A DNA stretch of 64,000 nucleotides from Microlunatus kandeliicorticis (lineage in GTDB: Bacteria; Actinomycetota; Actinomycetes; Propionibacteriales; Propionibacteriaceae): assembly GCF_014137855.1 (NCBI RefSeq), contig NZ_JACGWT010000004.1, positions 372,001-436,000 on the forward strand. The letters run 5' to 3'. The number at the start of each line of letters is the position of its first letter. Position 1 is the first letter of the stretch. A program made the translations under genes and the position numbers. Positions 50,956-56,881 of the stretch are shown piece after piece. Below the pieces are notes generated by a model. The model was not told where the DNA came from and ran no database searches. It worked only from the letters and a program-made list of their open reading frames with translations.

Positions 50956-51024
50956 GTCGCGACCGCGATCCGCCTCCGGGCGGCTCGAGCACCGACCGCC
51001 CACGACGACGTGATCGGAGCGCTC

Positions 51025-52128
51025 ATGAGGAAGGGTTCGGCGTCGACGACGCGGGGCCGGTCGCGGCCCGGGCGGCTGCTGCCGATGATCATGGCCCTCG
51101 TGCTCGTCGCCTCGGTGCTGACCGCCTGCTCCTACGGGGACAAGCGGATCGGGATCAGCCTGATCCTCAAGACCCAGACCAACCCCTACTTCGTGGCGAT
51201 GAAGCAGGCCGCGGTCGCCGAGGCGGCCAAGGAGGACATCCGGCTGTCGGTGGCCGCCGGCACCCAGGACGGCGACACCCAGAACCAGATCAACGAGATC
51301 TACACCGCCATCGCCCGCGGCGACAAGGGCATCCTGATCACCAGCAACGGCAACGCGATCAACGCGGCGCTCCGACAGGCCAAGAAGGCGGGGCTGTTCG
51401 TGATCGCGCTCGACACCCCGCTCGACCCGTCGGACACGGCCAACATCACCTTCGCCACCGACAACTTCGCCGCCGGCAAGGCGATCGGCGCCTACACCGC
51501 AGCCCGGCTGAACGGGGCCAAGGCGGTGATCGCGATGCTCGACCTCTACAACGACCAGGTGGTCGCCGTCGACACCAATCGCGACCACGGCTTCCTCACC
51601 GGGATGGGGATCAACCCTGGCGACCAGAGCCAGAACGGTCTCGAGCCCAAGACCGGCCGCTACACCGCGGGCAAGGGCGGCGAGTACCAGGTCGTCTGCC
51701 ACCGGCCCACCCAGGGCGCGATCGACGGCGGCCGCACCGCCATGGAGCAGTGCCTGGCCGCGAACCCGAACATCAACGTCGTCTACTCGATCAACGAGCC
51801 CGCCGGCGAGGGCGGCTACAACGCGCTGGTCGCCGCCGGCAAGGCCAAGCAGGCGATCGTGGTGACCATCGACGGCAGCTGCCACGGCATCGACCTGGTG
51901 CAGCAGGGCATCTTCGCCGCCGACTCCACCCAGTACCCCGGCAAGATGGCCCAGCTCGGGATCCAGGCGATCGCCAAGGTCGCCCGCGGCGGAGCCCCGC
52001 CGCAGACCAGCGCCGGCAAGTCGTTCTTCGACACCGGGACCGCGCTCGCCACCAACACGCCGCAGCAGGGCGTGACGAGCCAGACGCCGGCGGACGCCAA
52101 GAAGCTCTGCTGGGGCTCCGACTCGTGA
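51025..52128 (+). CDS. Sugar ABC transporter substrate-binding lipoprotein (FrcB-like)
   Basis: A 367-residue periplasmic-binding protein type I. 'MALVLVASVLTACSY' is a lipoprotein signal with C35 as the lipidated residue. 'IGISLILKTQTNPYFVAMKQAA' and 'INEPAGEGGYNALV' are typical of the RbsB/FrcB family. The ATG at 51025 has GGAG 5 bases upstream and is preferred to the GTG at 51010. With its permease and single-domain ATPase it resembles the fructose-type FrcBCA importers; the sugar is not certain. Confidence 0.88.
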   Translation: MRKGSASTTRGRSRPGRLLPMIMALVLVASVLTACSYGDKRIGISLILKTQTNPYFVAMKQAAVAEAAKEDIRLSVAAGTQDGDTQNQINEIYTAIARGDKGILITSNGNAINAALRQAKKAGLFVIALDTPLDPSDTANITFATDNFAAGKAIGAYTAARLNGAKAVIAMLDLYNDQVVAVDTNRDHGFLTGMGINPGDQSQNGLEPKTGRYTAGKGGEYQVVCHRPTQGAIDGGRTAMEQCLAANPNINVVYSINEPAGEGGYNALVAAGKAKQAIVVTIDGSCHGIDLVQQGIFAADSTQYPGKMAQLGIQAIAKVARGGAPPQTSAGKSFFDTGTALATNTPQQGVTSQTPADAKKLCWGSDS

Positions 52129-52255
52129 CCCGGCACCGCCCGCAGGATCACCGGCCCGATCACCGGCTCGATCAGAACCGCCCGCAGCACCGGGCACCGT
52201 CCACCCGCCACCGCCGACCGGCCCGACCACGGGCGCGCCAACACAGGAGGGTCTC

Positions 52256-53281
52256 GTGACACAGACCACGAGCGAGAGTCCGTCCTCGGTCGAGGACCTG
52301 CTCAGCCGCGGGAGCAGTCCCGCCGAGCGCATCCAGCACGTCCTGCACGGCAACCCGGCGCTCAGCCCGCTGATCGTGCTGGTGGTGTCCATGATCGTCT
52401 TCGGGATCGTCGCCCCGAACTTCCTGGCCCCGAGCGCGCTCTCGCTGCTGGTGCAGCAGATGGCGGTGGTCGGGGCGCTCGCGGTCGGGCAGACGCTGAT
52501 CATCCTGACCGCCGGCGTCGACCTGTCGATCGGCGTCGCCATGGTGCTGTCGTCGCTGGTGATGGCCAAGCTCAACGCCGGTGGCGTCCCCGGGTTCATC
52601 GCGCTGCTGATCGGGCTCGCGGTGGCGGTGCTGACCGGGTTGCTGAACGGCCTGCTGGTCACCCGGATCCACCTGCCACCGTTCATCGTCACCCTGGGCA
52701 CGTTCTCGATCTTCACCGCGATCTCGCTGCTCTACGCGCAGGGGCAGACCATCAGCCTCGACCCGAACGCGTTCCTGCTGGTCACCGGCAGCTCGATCTC
52801 GATCGGCTCCGTCGGCATCACCTGGGGCGTGATCCTGATGCTCCTACTGGTCGTGGTGGTCGGCTTCGCGCTCCGGACCACGGCCTGGGGACGGCACCTC
52901 TACGCCACCGGTGACGACCGCGAGGCCGCCTCGATGGCCGGCATCTCGACCCGCCGGGTGCTGCTCAGCGCCTACGTGGTCGCCGGCTTCTGCGTCGGCA
53001 TCGCCGCCTGGATCGTCTGCGGCCGGGTCGGCGGCGCCGACCCGAACGCCGGCCTCAACTACAACCTGCTCAGCATCACCGCCGTGGTGATCGGCGGCAC
53101 CAGCCTGTTCGGCGGCCGCGGCGCCGTGGTCGGCACCCTGATCGGGGCGCTGATCGTCCAGGTGTTCAACAGCGGCCTGGCGCTGGCCGGGGTCGACCCG
53201 AACTACCAGGTGCTGGCCACCGGCATCCTGGTCATCCTCGCCGTCTCGGTGGACCAGTGGATCAGGAGGGTGAAATCATGA
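52256..53281 (+). CDS. Sugar ABC transporter permease (FrcC/RbsC-like)
   Basis: A 341-residue membrane permease with about ten helices. 'GQTLIILTAGVDLSIGVAMVLSS' and 'GDDREAASMAGISTRR' (the EAA-like loop that contacts the ATPase), and 'VIGGTSLFGGRGAVVGTLIGA' are family hallmarks. The start is GTG at 52256 with AGGAGGG upstream. It follows the binding protein after 127 bp, in which only a short direct repeat (GATCACCGGC) was seen, and overlaps the ATPase gene by ATGA. Confidence 0.9.
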   Translation: MTQTTSESPSSVEDLLSRGSSPAERIQHVLHGNPALSPLIVLVVSMIVFGIVAPNFLAPSALSLLVQQMAVVGALAVGQTLIILTAGVDLSIGVAMVLSSLVMAKLNAGGVPGFIALLIGLAVAVLTGLLNGLLVTRIHLPPFIVTLGTFSIFTAISLLYAQGQTISLDPNAFLLVTGSSISIGSVGITWGVILMLLLVVVVGFALRTTAWGRHLYATGDDREAASMAGISTRRVLLSAYVVAGFCVGIAAWIVCGRVGGADPNAGLNYNLLSITAVVIGGTSLFGGRGAVVGTLIGALIVQVFNSGLALAGVDPNYQVLATGILVILAVSVDQWIRRVKS

Positions 53282-54099
53282 CCGACACCGCGAGCGTGGA
53301 GACCCGTCCCACCGACAGCCAGACCCCGGTGCTCGAGGCGACCGGGCTGGTCAAGCTGTTCGGCCGCGTGGTCGGGCTGCGGGGCGTCGACATCCGGTTG
53401 TTCCCCGGCGAGGTGCTGGCGGTGATCGGCGACAACGGCGCCGGCAAGTCGACCCTGATCAAGTGCCTGACCGGGGCGATGACGCCGGACCAGGGCACGA
53501 TCAAGATCGAGGGCCGCGAGGTCAACTTCAAGACCACCCAGGACGCCCGTGCGGCCGGGATCGAGACAGTTTACCAGACCCTGGCCGTCGCCCCCGCGCT
53601 CGACATCGCCAGCAACCTCTACCTGGGCCGGGAGATCCGGCGTCCCGGGTTCGCCGGCAAAGTGCTGCGGATGCTCGACAAGAAGGCGATGCGCCAGCAC
53701 GCGCAGGACCACATCCGCAGCCTGGGCATCACCACCCTGCAGAACATCGACCAGGCCGTCGAGACGCTCTCCGGCGGTCAGCGGCAGGTGGTCGCGGTGG
53801 CCCGCACCGGCGCGTTCGGCAGCAAGGTCGCCATCCTCGACGAGCCGACCGCGGCCCTCGGGGTCCGCGAGACCGGGCAGGTGCTCAAGCTGGTCCGCGA
53901 CCTGCGCGACAAGGGGCTCGGGGTGATCCTGATCAGCCACAACATGCCGAACGTGTTCGAGACCGCCGACCGGATCCACATCCAGCGGCTGGGCGGGGCG
54001 GTCGGGGTGATCAGCCCGAAGACGCACTCCCCCGAGGACGCGGTCGCCTTCATGACCGGGGCCCGGCAGCTGCGCGAGGACGAGCAGACCCTGCGCTGA
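53278..54099 (+). CDS. Sugar ABC transporter ATP-binding protein (FrcA-like)
   Basis: A 273-residue single ATPase domain: Walker A 'GDNGAGKST', signature 'LSGGQRQVVAVAR', Walker B 'VAILDEPTAALG', and the switch His in 'ILISHNM'. Ribose-type importers carry two such domains in one about 500-residue protein; the single domain fits the fructose (FrcA) type, working as a homodimer. The ATG has AGGAGGG upstream and overlaps the permease stop. Confidence 0.9.
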   Translation: MTDTASVETRPTDSQTPVLEATGLVKLFGRVVGLRGVDIRLFPGEVLAVIGDNGAGKSTLIKCLTGAMTPDQGTIKIEGREVNFKTTQDARAAGIETVYQTLAVAPALDIASNLYLGREIRRPGFAGKVLRMLDKKAMRQHAQDHIRSLGITTLQNIDQAVETLSGGQRQVVAVARTGAFGSKVAILDEPTAALGVRETGQVLKLVRDLRDKGLGVILISHNMPNVFETADRIHIQRLGGAVGVISPKTHSPEDAVAFMTGARQLREDEQTLR

Positions 54100-54139: not shown

Positions 54140-54544
54140 ATGGACATCGTGATCGGCTACCTGCCGACCCGCGAAGGCTCGGCGGCGCTCGACCAGGCGA
54201 TCGCGCTGGCCAAGAGCGGCGGCCACCGGCTGGTGGTGGTCAACACCGGCAAGAACGGCGACAACGCCCACCCGTCCTTCGCCTCGGCCCAGGACCTCGA
54301 CGCGATCACCGCCGAGCTGACCGAGGCGGGGATCGAGCACGAGGTCCGGCAGGTGACCGCCGCCACCTCGGCCGCGGCGGCGGTGGTCGAGACCGCGGCC
54401 GAGGTCGGCGCCGGGCTGGTGGTGATCGGGATGCGGCGGCGCAGCCCGGTGGGCAAGATCCTCACCGGCAGCACCGCGCAGGCGGTGCTGATGGACGCCC
54501 CGTGTCCGGTGCTGTCGATCAAGCCGGGCCAGCGCCCGCTGTGA
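54140..54544 (+). CDS. Universal stress protein (UspA family)
   Basis: A 134-residue cytosolic protein. It opens 'DIVIGYLPTREGSAALDQAI' and ends with 'GMRRRSPVGKILTGSTAQAVL', which fits the ATP-binding G-2x-G-9x-G(S/T) motif. It lies 40 bp after the ABC ATPase with AGAGGA upstream, so it appears to be the last gene of the sugar importer operon. Its role there is not known. Confidence 0.88.
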   Translation: MDIVIGYLPTREGSAALDQAIALAKSGGHRLVVVNTGKNGDNAHPSFASAQDLDAITAELTEAGIEHEVRQVTAATSAAAAVVETAAEVGAGLVVIGMRRRSPVGKILTGSTAQAVLMDAPCPVLSIKPGQRPL

Positions 54545-54647: not shown

Positions 54648-55244
54648 GTGCCCCCCAGCCGACGTCTGCTGCGCCACAGCCGGTGGGTGGTCTGGCCGGT
54701 CGCCTTCGTCGTCGCCGGTCTGGTCGTCGCCCAGGGCTCGTACTCCGCCTTCAGCGCCAAGGTCTCCAATGCGGGCAACTCGTTCTCCGTGGGCACCGTC
54801 GCGCTCAACGACGACGATGCCGGCAGTGCGCTGTTCAGCCTGACCAACCTGCGTCCGGGGTCGTCCGGCACCCAGTGCATCACGGTCACCTCGACCGGCA
54901 CCCTGCCCTCGACGGTGAAGCTCTACACCAGCGGCGCCTCGACGACCAAGGCGCTGGCGAGCTACGTCAACCTGACCATCACCCAGGGCAGCGGCGGGTC
55001 CTACGGCTCGTGCTCGGGTTTCGTCGCGCAGAGCAGCGGGTCGTCGCTCTACGCGGGCACGCTGGCCGCGCTGACCGGCTCGGCCACCGGCTTCGCGACC
55101 GGGCTCGGCAGCTGGGCACCGACCGGCACCGGCAGCGAGAGCCGGACCTTCCAGTTCGGCTACGTGATCAGCTCGGGCACGCCCGACTCGGCGCAGGGCG
55201 GCACCGCGAGCGTCGGGTTCACCTGGGAGGCCCAGAACAGCTGA
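54648..55244 (+). CDS. Exported protein with SipW/TasA-type leader
   Basis: A 198-residue secreted protein. Residues 13-30 form the hydrophobic leader, followed directly by 'SYSAFSAKVSNAGNSFSVGT', the pattern seen just after the cleavage site of camelysin/TasA-like substrates of SipW signal peptidases. The rest is Ser/Thr/Gly-rich beta structure with two cysteines (TQCITV; GSCSGF) and no anchor. Start GTG at 54648 with AGGAG upstream. It stops 2 bp before the signal peptidase fusion gene, so the two are one unit, and it is the likely substrate of that peptidase. TasA-type proteins form extracellular fibres; a structural surface role is inferred. Confidence 0.7.
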   Translation: MPPSRRLLRHSRWVVWPVAFVVAGLVVAQGSYSAFSAKVSNAGNSFSVGTVALNDDDAGSALFSLTNLRPGSSGTQCITVTSTGTLPSTVKLYTSGASTTKALASYVNLTITQGSGGSYGSCSGFVAQSSGSSLYAGTLAALTGSATGFATGLGSWAPTGTGSESRTFQFGYVISSGTPDSAQGGTASVGFTWEAQNS

Positions 55245-55246
55245 TC

Positions 55247-56881
55247 ATGCCGCCCGACCAGAGCCCCGAGACCCCCGCCGGCACCGTCACGGCGGACGCC
55301 CGCACCGACCACGCCCGCACCGACCACGACCGCACCGACCACGACCGCACCGACCACGACCGCGTCGAGCACGATCCCGCCGAGCACCCGGCCGCCGCCA
55401 CCGGTGAACGACTGCCGGGCTGGCCCGAGCTGCTCGGGATCACCCTGGCCCGTGCGGTGCTCGCCGCCCTGCTGTCGCTGGCCGCCTGGGCGGCCGTCCC
55501 GGCGCTGATCGGATGGCACCCGACCACGGTGATGACCGGCTCGATGATGCCGCGGTTGCACGTCGGGGACGTCGCGGTCTCCCGGCCGCTGCACGGCAGG
55601 GCTCCGACCCTGGGCACGGTGCTGCTGTTCGACGACCCCGACCACCCGGGCCGGCTCCGGCTGCACCGGTTCGTGGCGGTCGACCCGGAGGGCCGGATCG
55701 TCACCAAGGGCGACGCCAACCCGCAGAACGACTCGAGCCCGATCACCGCGGCCGCCGTCCGCGGGGTCGGCACGCTGCGGGTGCCGTTCCTCGGTCTGCC
55801 GGTGCTGTGGATCCGTACCGGCGACTGGCTGCCGCTCGGGCTGACCGTCGCCGGCCTGATCGGGCTGATCGCCCTGGCCGGGCGTCCGGTCGTCCGCCGG
55901 ACGGACGACGAGGCCCGCGACGGCCACGACGACGGGGCCGACAACGGCGACGGGGCCGACAACGCCAGCGACGGGGCCGACCGCACGTCGGCGGAAGCGC
56001 AGCGTCGCAACCCGGCGCCGCACCCGACGCCCACGGGTGGTCGTCCGGTCCGCCGGATGGCGGCCGCGGTGACGGCGACCACCGCCGCCGCGGTCCTACT
56101 GACCGCGGTCGGCGTACCCGCGGGCGCCGCCTTCTCCGACACCACCGACACCTCCGCCGACTTCGCCGCGCTGCCCTACTTCACCTGTGCGAGTGCGGTG
56201 GTCGCGTCCTCGCCCTGGGTCTACTACCGGATGGACGAGACGCTGCTCAGCGTGCTCGGCGCGGTCGACAGCTCGGGCAACAACCGCACCGGCACCTACA
56301 GCAGCACCGGCCGGACCACCCAGCAGACCCGGGCCTGCACCCGGGACAGCGGGTACGCGATGAGCTTCAACGGCAGCAACGGTTCGCTCAGCTCGCCGCT
56401 CTACAACGCGGCGCCGCCGAACACCTTCACGGTGGCGATCTGGTTCAAGACGACCACGACCAAGGGCGGCAAGCTGATCGGCTGGGGCAACAGCCAGACC
56501 GGGCTCTCCGGCACCTACGACCGGCACCTCTACCTGACCAACGCCGGCGCGGTCGTCTTCGGCGTCTACCCCGGCGCGGTCCGGACGGTCAGCTCGGCGA
56601 CCGGGCTGAACGACGGCAAGTGGCACCAGGCCGTCGGCACGCTGTCCCCGGCCGGGCAGGTGCTCTACGTCGACGGTGTGCAGGTGGCCGCCGACCCGAG
56701 CACCACCAGTGCCGAGCAGGCGTCGAGCTCGGGCTACTGGCGGATCGGCTACGACAACCTGGCCAACTGGACCAACACCCCGACCAGCAACTACTTCTCC
56801 GGCACGCTCGACGACGCCGCGGTCTACCTGACCGCGCTCAGCGCCACCACGGTCCGCAACCAGTACCTGGCCGGCACCTAG
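55247..56881 (+). CDS. Fusion: SipW/ER-type signal peptidase I with a LamG-like domain
   Basis: A 544-residue protein with an unusual order. Residues 1-58 are polar, with four tandem TDH(D/A)R units (20-39). Membrane segment 64-88 leads to the peptidase: 'TGSMMPRLHVGDVAV' (Ser99), 'LHRFVAVDPEGR' (His140) and 'VTKGDANPQND' (Asp156), the Ser-His-Asp arrangement of the SipW/archaeal/ER type rather than the Ser-Lys bacterial type. Segment 193-212 closes the enzyme. An acidic linker is followed by a third hydrophobic stretch (272-296) and 'AAFSDTTDTSADFAALPYFTC', which looks like the mature start of a SipW substrate. Residues about 315-544 resemble a LamG/concanavalin lectin domain ('WVYYRMDE', 'FTVAIWFKTTT', 'KWHQAVGTL', 'VLYVDGVQV', 'GTLDDAAVY'). 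The frame is continuous. The lectin part could be self-released by the peptidase. Confidence 0.75.
   Translation: MPPDQSPETPAGTVTADARTDHARTDHDRTDHDRTDHDRVEHDPAEHPAAATGERLPGWPELLGITLARAVLAALLSLAAWAAVPALIGWHPTTVMTGSMMPRLHVGDVAVSRPLHGRAPTLGTVLLFDDPDHPGRLRLHRFVAVDPEGRIVTKGDANPQNDSSPITAAAVRGVGTLRVPFLGLPVLWIRTGDWLPLGLTVAGLIGLIALAGRPVVRRTDDEARDGHDDGADNGDGADNASDGADRTSAEAQRRNPAPHPTPTGGRPVRRMAAAVTATTAAAVLLTAVGVPAGAAFSDTTDTSADFAALPYFTCASAVVASSPWVYYRMDETLLSVLGAVDSSGNNRTGTYSSTGRTTQQTRACTRDSGYAMSFNGSNGSLSSPLYNAAPPNTFTVAIWFKTTTTKGGKLIGWGNSQTGLSGTYDRHLYLTNAGAVVFGVYPGAVRTVSSATGLNDGKWHQAVGTLSPAGQVLYVDGVQVAADPSTTSAEQASSSGYWRIGYDNLANWTNTPTSNYFSGTLDDAAVYLTALSATTVRNQYLAGT
55304..55363 (+). repeat. 15-bp in-frame tandem repeat
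   Basis: Four units of ACCGACCACGACCGC (first with one change) encode TDHAR, TDHDR, TDHDR, TDHDR near the N-terminus of the signal peptidase fusion; two decayed units (VEHDP, AEHPA) follow. Units are nearly identical, so copy number may vary. Confidence 0.8.

What the first reader, a model, noticed from the sequence alone, without database searches (positions are those of the whole stretch)
55247..56881. Signal peptidase fused in one chain to a SipW-like leader and LamG lectin domain
Seen directly: one uninterrupted 544-residue frame holds an ER/SipW-type peptidase (S99, H140, D156), its two membrane segments, then a third hydrophobic stretch and 'AAFSDTTDTS', which resembles the mature start of SipW/TasA substrates, then a LamG-like domain. 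Known: SipW-type peptidases normally process separate substrates. Inference: the enzyme carries its own substrate and may release the lectin domain in cis, or in trans between copies, coupling surface-protein output to peptidase level.
Basis: partly seen in the sequence, partly recalled or inferred. Interest (0 to 1): 0.78.

Follow-up and report, generated by a model that had tools for sequence, protein, structure and literature searches.

The report
Signal peptidase fused to its own substrate
A bacterial enzyme that trims export signals is made as one chain with a surface protein that carries such a signal, and relatives in many actinobacteria suggest that it cuts its own passenger free, which has still to be tested at the bench.

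Summary
The fusion is real. Window 55247-56881 is one frame of 544 residues: an ER/SipW-type signal peptidase (S99, H140, D156), a linker, an internal SipW-type leader (PAGA|AFSDT) and a LamG domain, 2 bases behind a TasA-like gene. In 15 other loci the two proteins are separate neighbours; in the 8 of one lineage the nearest LamG start overlaps the peptidase stop as RTGA. Thirteen further peptidases carry other cargo. A model from leaders of separate TasA-like genes has its best hit on the internal leader in 47 of 56 fusions, 2 of 56 after shuffling. P2', where E. coli LepB tolerates aromatic residues poorly, is aromatic in 48 of 56. Internal starts with a ribosome site are rare (7 of 56). 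In 5 of 32 genomes tested the fused gene is the only match to the ER-type peptidase model, so self-processing, in cis or between copies, is the simplest reading. Cleavage is untested, and NCBI's own SipW-leader model does not match. My nine paper searches listed none on it.

The parts
54648..55244 (+). TasA/camelysin-like (Peptidase_M73) gene, 198 aa, with its own N-terminal SipW-type leader; probable second substrate of the fused peptidase
   Evidence: Pfam PF12389 E 8.9e-5 (22.8 bits, cut-off 22.5); TIGR04088 14 bits, below cut-off 19; 39 of 41 short-form fusions have such a gene ending within 400 nt before the peptidase domain
55247..56881 (+). The fused gene, 544 aa (stop codon included)
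   Evidence: fused relatives
55460..55879 (+). ER/SipW-type signal peptidase with its membrane segments (about residues 72-211); S99 at 55541-55543, H140 at 55664-55666, D156 at 55712-55714, D162 at 55730-55732
   Evidence: residue letters checked
55892..56050 (+). Charged, poorly conserved linker (residues 216-268), inferred to be cytosolic
   Evidence: mean pairwise identity 0.28 and 21% gaps in 7 congeneric rows; side of membrane inferred from hydropathy
56051..56128 (+). Internal SipW-type leader (residues 269-294, RRMAAA...VPAGA); predicted cut between A294 and A295, F296 at P2'
56129..56878 (+). Cargo, residues 295-544; LamG/ConA-like jellyroll domain at 376-536 (56372-56854)
   Evidence: Pfam PF13385 E 5.2e-19; jellyroll matches of the predicted model; PDB sequence matches

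Best explanation
This is a self-processing signal peptidase-substrate fusion. Shown by sequence: an ER/SipW-type peptidase with its Ser, His and Asp, a linker, an internal SipW-type leader, then a LamG domain. Inferred: the chain inserts with peptidase and leader cleavage site both on the outer face; the fused peptidase, in its own chain or in a neighbouring copy, cuts after A294 and frees LamG with the new N-terminus AFSDTT; the membrane-bound peptidase that remains also matures the TasA-like protein encoded just upstream. LamG would then be a minor adhesive or anchoring partner of a TasA-like surface fibre, as TapA is beside TasA (analogy recalled, not tested). Fusion fixes enzyme and substrate at about 1:1, which the split forms may approach through overlapping genes.
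For: One frame in 56 ORFs of 53 loci, which the fetch lists place in 51 genomes of six families; one more outside the class (L226). By text patterns S and H are present in 56 of 56 and the Asp box in 55 of 56. P1 Ala in 53 of 56 (sites were picked by a motif score, which inflates this); small-x-Ala|x-aromatic in 46 of 56 against a mean of 15.3 and maximum of 21 in 50 shuffles. A model from 64 leaders of separate TasA-like genes has its best hit on the internal site in 47 of 56 fusions, 33 at i-E < 0.01; after one shuffle of that segment 2 of 56 and 0 (the 64 leaders were themselves picked by an [AS][AGS][FY][ST] pattern). Aromatic P2' in 48 of 56; E. coli LepB cuts such sites poorly, and ER-type SipW cuts TasA, which has Phe there (PMC10269814, abstract and introduction). 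In G067, G400, G303, G390 and G223 the fused gene is the only TIGR02228 match at E <= 0.01, and in all five P2' is aromatic. Within the genus the cleavage site is 52% identical without gaps beside a linker at 28% with gaps. Peptidase and LamG gene are neighbours in 15 split pairs. Starts with a Shine-Dalgarno-like site before the leader in 7 of 56 fusions, 8 of 16 separate LamG genes, 60 of 73 TasA-like genes.
Against: No cleavage has been seen. NCBI's leader model TIGR04088 matched none of 10 fused rows at E <= 1. The own genome has a second SipW-type peptidase that could do the cutting, and 20 of the 32 genomes have a further match that covers most of the profile (in G389 and G413 partly a second fusion). 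The structure model is weak (mean pLDDT 61, linker and leader mostly under 50) and says nothing on whether the leader reaches S99. Loops of 9 to 96 residues in the short form, L178 left out, show no fixed geometry. L178 lacks the Asp box and the second membrane segment. The LepB argument rests on the E. coli enzyme. The scan of named genomes found no LamG fusion: of 18 loci, four are fusions with other cargo and none a LamG fusion (that scan finds close relatives only and leaves out the window's own record and ones very near it).
Confidence: 0.68

Rival explanations
1. Tethered reading: the internal leader is a signal anchor that is not cut. LamG stays on the membrane-bound peptidase and places it, or holds a TasA-like fibre at the cell surface.
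For: No cleavage was observed; the third hydrophobic stretch is long enough to span the membrane; a fused state is a natural anchor.
Against: Small P3 and P1 and an aromatic P2' occur far more often than in shuffled segments, the site is kept better than the stretch around it, and it resembles leaders of separate substrates. Separate LamG homologues carry a similar leader at their N-terminus.
Confidence: 0.15
2. LamG is freed, but by another peptidase: a second SipW-type enzyme of the genome or a canonical LepB.
For: The own genome holds a second SipW-type enzyme and two LepB-like ones (named by eye); 20 of 32 fused genomes have another match that covers most of the ER-type profile.
Against: In 5 of 32 the fused gene is the only match at E <= 0.01, and in 12 of 32 the only one that reaches past profile position 103 (the partial rows of the other seven were not read). 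The 32 are of 39 genomes with a short-form fusion. Aromatic P2' is poor for E. coli LepB.
Confidence: 0.1
3. Two products from one frame: the ribosome starts again before the leader, so that a separate LamG protein is also made.
For: The window has an in-frame ATG at 56057 (residue 271) and a GTG four codons on, just before the leader core.
Against: No Shine-Dalgarno-like site before either. Starts with such a site occur in 7 of 56 fusions against 60 of 73 TasA-like genes; 21 of 56 have no ATG/GTG/TTG at all 17 to 50 codons before the cut.
Confidence: 0.05
4. Artefact: a frameshift or missed stop joins two genes.
For: Split homologues exist, one in the same genome.
Against: The same joined order in 56 ORFs of 51 genomes, several of them single-contig assemblies, with linkers of differing length.
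Confidence: 0.01

Closest known systems
SipW of Bacillus subtilis and the tapA-sipW-tasA operon
   Same: ER-type (Ser-His) signal peptidase beside a TasA-like substrate; leader with aromatic P2' (TasA/SipW facts from PMC10269814, abstract and introduction; operon order recalled)
   Different: There the substrates are separate proteins cut in trans; here one substrate is in the enzyme's own chain, and it is a LamG protein
ER signal peptidase complex catalytic subunits SEC11A/SEC11C
   Same: Peptidase part matches by profile (E 1.2e-4 SEC11C, 0.0018 SEC11A)
   Different: No fused substrate; part of a eukaryotic complex (recalled)
Split long-form pairs of related bacteria (own genome C5, L083; L079-L082, L163, L164, L167)
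   Same: SipW-type peptidase, then a LamG protein with a SipW-type leader, in that order
   Different: Two genes whose nearest start and stop overlap as RTGA instead of one frame; the peptidase has an extra membrane region
Autoprocessing viral polyproteins, and nickel-SOD maturation protease fused to its substrate (the latter recalled only; one search listed nothing that confirms it)
   Same: Protease and substrate in one chain
   Different: Other proteases and compartments; here the cut would remove an export leader

Membership tests
ER/SipW-type signal peptidase (S26B) | Ser and His (not Lys) active site with Asp | tested here: met
   S99, H140, D156, D162 invariant in 10 aligned rows; by text pattern S 56/56, H 56/56, Asp box 55/56
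ER/SipW-type signal peptidase (S26B) | Score over the curated cut-off of TIGR02228 (51.85 bits) | tested here: not met
   44.2 bits, 47.2 in the genome scan; fused relatives such as G400, G401 and G337 are over it
SipW equivalog (NF046067) | Score over the cut-off of 190 bits | tested here: not met
   28.6 bits: SipW-like, not filed as SipW
SipW-dependent substrate (TIGR04088) | Match to the leader model | tested here: not met
   No match at E <= 1 in the window protein or in 10 fused rows; HMMER's filters drop most matches above about 0.1. The upstream TasA-like gene matches below cut-off (14 bits, cut-off 19)
SipW-dependent substrate (by features) | Positive n-region, hydrophobic core, small P3/P1, aromatic P2' | tested here: met
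   Window VPAGA|AFSDT; net positive n-region in 53 of 56, motif in 46 of 56; leader-model test
SipW-dependent substrate (by features) | Leader at the N-terminus of the protein | tested here: not met
   Leader is internal, residues 269-294
SipW-dependent substrate (by features) | Cleavage by a SipW-type peptidase | not testable with these tools
   Needs expression and N-terminal sequencing
LamG domain (PF13385) | Score over gathering cut-off | tested here: met
   69.3 bits against 27.6
TafC fimbrial protein (NF052521) | Score over the cut-off of 410 bits | tested here: not met
   21.8 bits; only the LamG end matches

The most novel reading that the evidence does not exclude
A general actinobacterial design in which an ER-type signal peptidase is a self-secreting carrier: each chain brings one exchangeable cargo (LamG, Ig-like, Fn3-like, sortase-motif ended) behind an internal leader that other peptidases cut poorly, and the enzyme cuts it once in cis, leaving an active peptidase that then matures the TasA-like neighbour. 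Export of the passenger would be a built-in count of active peptidases.
Probability: 0.35. Interest if true: 0.82.

Novelty: new variant of a known kind. Interest (0 to 1): 0.63.

Why it matters
Signal peptidases are thought of as housekeeping enzymes that act on other proteins. A recurrent fusion of the enzyme to a substrate whose leader is of its own class gives a natural system in which cis against trans cleavage, substrate choice (aromatic P2') and coupling of peptidase level to surface-protein output can be tested with point mutants. It also ties LamG proteins of actinobacteria to TasA-like genes, which could help to annotate many surface proteins of unknown role.

Tried and rejected
Sequencing error or missed stop: rejected by 56 fused ORFs. 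Internal start: rejected as a conserved feature (7 of 56; an earlier site picker gave 6 of 56). A narrow pattern for the catalytic residues found S in 53, D in 53 and H in 37 of 56; wider patterns gave 56, 55 and 56, and the rows printed show why (VHR, SHR, ASM, GDNN). Open linkers as proof by themselves: dropped, since the other frames are open in 30 and 33 of 50 and openness was the selection rule. Structure prediction with nine rows gave a weak model, so I draw nothing from it on leader docking; Foldseek on it shows a generic jellyroll for the LamG part and no signal peptidase among the 50 rows shown. The second structure job was not used. Before the tree, peptidase matches under 120 residues were dropped and L178 was cut to its first 101 residues. 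Literature: (SipW, signal peptidase, LamG) 0 papers; (signal peptidase, LamG) 5 papers, unrelated by title and abstract start; (SipW-dependent, actinobacteria) 0; 0; searches listed no paper whose title or abstract start tells of such a fusion. Only PMC10269814 was opened (outline with abstract, and introduction). The library is open-access papers only, and domain databases may list this architecture without comment. Taxon of the window: genome sizes and family layout made me think of Propionibacteriales; not tested.

Full report
OBSERVATION. The frame at 55247-56881 is one ORF of 544 aa. It begins 2 bases after the stop of a 198-aa TasA/camelysin-like gene (54648-55244; Pfam Peptidase_M73). 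Pfam finds Laminin_G_3 at residues 376-536 well over its cut-off. NCBIfam finds the archaeal/ER-type signal peptidase model at 67-185 and SipW at 79-190, both below the curated cut-offs. A profile of the fused family matches SEC11C and SEC11A among solved structures (E 1.2e-4 and 0.0018).

IS THE JOIN REAL? In the genus, 7 of 20 genomes searched have one match from the peptidase into the end of LamG in one open frame; in the family 8 of 198, by single rows. With a profile of ten fused proteins (A1), such single rows were listed in 27 of 391 genomes of the order, 11 of 394 of the class and 2 of 296 of the phylum. The samples overlap, and the listings were cut, so these are lower bounds; the long form described below is not caught by this count. 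I then fetched loci that had matched (so no prevalence can be read from them) and read every frame: 56 ORFs in 53 loci hold the peptidase and then LamG. By the fetch lists they come from 51 genomes of families f1, f3, f30, f34, f39 and f41. One more, L226 (family f71), lies outside the class. Against this, the scan of named genomes with the window protein gave 18 loci, none with a LamG fusion; that scan finds close relatives only.

TWO FUSED FORMS AND SPLIT FORMS. There is a short form like the window (41 ORFs) and a long form (15 ORFs) with over 100 further residues and extra membrane segments between peptidase and leader. In the own genome the long form exists as two genes (L003/L083). I examined 15 split pairs. 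In the 8 of the long-form lineage the start codon nearest to the peptidase stop, in the LamG frame, overlaps it as ATGA or GTGA, the arrangement of translationally coupled genes; in the other seven the nearest start lies 17 to 23 bases before the stop (five) or 16 and 26 bases after it (two). Starts were taken by nearness, not shown. On a tree of 104 peptidase domains the labels fused-LamG, split-LamG and fused-other need at least 9, 4 and 6 changes, of which starred branches force 5, 3 and 6, so joining or splitting happened several times.

OTHER CARGO. Peptidase, linker, hydrophobic stretch with a small-residue site and then another cargo were read in 13 ORFs: four Microbacteriaceae (L006, L007, L009, L011; small beta domain by eye), L076 and L177 (repeats; L177 has Pfam Big_7, E 9.4e-22), L098, L100, L101, L102, L212, L203, and L207, whose end matches a LAVTG sortase-motif model below its cut-off. 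Outside the class, L231 has a longer insert before LamG, and L232 and L233 have other cargo. Of the ten fused proteins scanned, two had a Pfam match in the cargo over the family's cut-off (L177 Ig-like, L231 LamG).

THE INTERNAL LEADER. With a site chosen by a motif score, P1 is Ala in 53 of 56 and P2' is Phe in 42 and Tyr in 6. Because the score favours such residues, I compared with shuffled leader regions: small-x-Ala|x-aromatic in 46 of 56 against a mean of 15.3 and a maximum of 21 in 50 shuffles; aromatic P2' in 48 of 56 against a mean of 28.3 and a maximum of 41. A second test used 64 leaders of separate TasA-like genes, themselves picked by a short pattern: the model's best hit covers the internal site in 47 of 56 fusions (33 at i-E < 0.01), lies elsewhere in 9, and covers it in 2 of 56 (0 at that level) when the segment is shuffled once. 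The stretch before the core is net positive in 53 of 56. Against: NCBI's TIGR04088 leader model matches none of ten fused rows. Within the genus the linker is 28% identical with gaps, the leader core 33%, the cleavage site 52% without gaps, the catalytic region 78%, LamG 61%.

ONE CHAIN OR TWO? An in-frame start with a Shine-Dalgarno-like site 17 to 50 codons before the cut occurs in 7 of 56 fusions, 8 of 16 separate LamG genes (L078, whose contig lacks the peptidase, counted) and 60 of 73 TasA-like genes; 21 of 56 fusions have no start codon there at all. So LamG is most likely made as part of the fused chain.

WHO CUTS IT? E. coli LepB cuts sites with an aromatic P2' poorly, and B. subtilis TasA, with Phe there, is cut by the ER-type SipW (PMC10269814, abstract and introduction). 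The window has F296 at P2'. The own genome has the fused enzyme, the split long-form enzyme and two LepB-like ones, the last named by eye. I searched 32 of the 39 genomes with a short-form fusion for TIGR02228. The fused gene is the only match at E <= 0.01 in 5 (G067, G400, G303, G390, G223), and the only one whose match reaches past profile position 103 in 12 (those and G313, G336, G401, G090, G292, G005, G372); the partial rows of the last seven were not read. The other 20 have a further long match (in G389 and G413 partly a second fusion). All five clean cases have an aromatic P2'. If an ER-type enzyme is needed there, it is the fused one, in cis or between copies.

MECHANISM. Shown: anatomy, conservation, adjacency and the kind of leader. 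Inferred: topology with the linker inside and both active site and cut site outside (hydropathy only); cleavage after A294; release of LamG, which has a further, mostly weak hydrophobic window after the cut in 8 of 56, the window among them at 1.36; maturation of the TasA-like neighbour by the same enzyme. A TasA-like stop lies within 400 nt before the peptidase domain in 39 of 41 short-form fusions; of the two others, G067 has one about 700 nt upstream and in G090 the stop falls just past the first matched residue. None of the 15 long-form fusions has one by this model. The role as fibre partner is by analogy with tapA-sipW-tasA (recalled). Loops between the second membrane segment and leader run from 9 to 96 residues in the short form, L178 left out, which fits both cis and trans; the shortest make leader and membrane segment close neighbours. 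The AlphaFold model is too weak to decide.

NOVELTY. The enzyme class, the leader class and LamG are known. A peptidase that carries such a substrate in its own chain, repeatedly and with changing cargo, was not told of in the titles and abstract starts that nine searches listed. I call it a new variant of a known kind.

Noticed in passing
L083 (own genome C5, about 275114-276780 and upstream): Second SipW-type unit of the same genome: a 187-aa gene whose listed start reads like the mature end of a SipW-type leader (leader itself not read), a long-form peptidase and a LamG gene, the last two overlapping as GTGA.
   Followed up: partly
L178 (G396): A fused relative whose peptidase lacks the GDAN box and the second membrane segment, while leader and LamG remain; described only.
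   Followed up: partly
L207:4109-5302: An ER-type peptidase fused to a cargo that ends in a LARTG-like sortase motif and a hydrophobic tail; the LAVTG model matches below its cut-off.
   Followed up: partly
L098, L100, L101, L102, L212: A separate clade of ER-type peptidases with a leader and a small Fn3-like cargo (by eye; no Pfam match in L098 and L100), each in a locus with a second, stand-alone ER-type peptidase gene.
   Followed up: partly
window 55298-55375: The N-terminal tail of the window protein holds DHDRT repeats not seen in the fused relatives printed; they probably explain the loci L018-L022.
   Followed up: no
window 51010-54099: Three genes that look like a sugar ABC importer (binding protein, permease, ATPase) and a universal-stress-like gene at 54140-54544 lie before the TasA-like gene; names by eye only.
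   Followed up: no
L067, L068, L069, L070, L071, L072, L197, L199, L200: A further TasA-like gene (two in L070) lies near the fused gene besides the one just upstream, so one fused enzyme may serve several substrates.
   Followed up: partly
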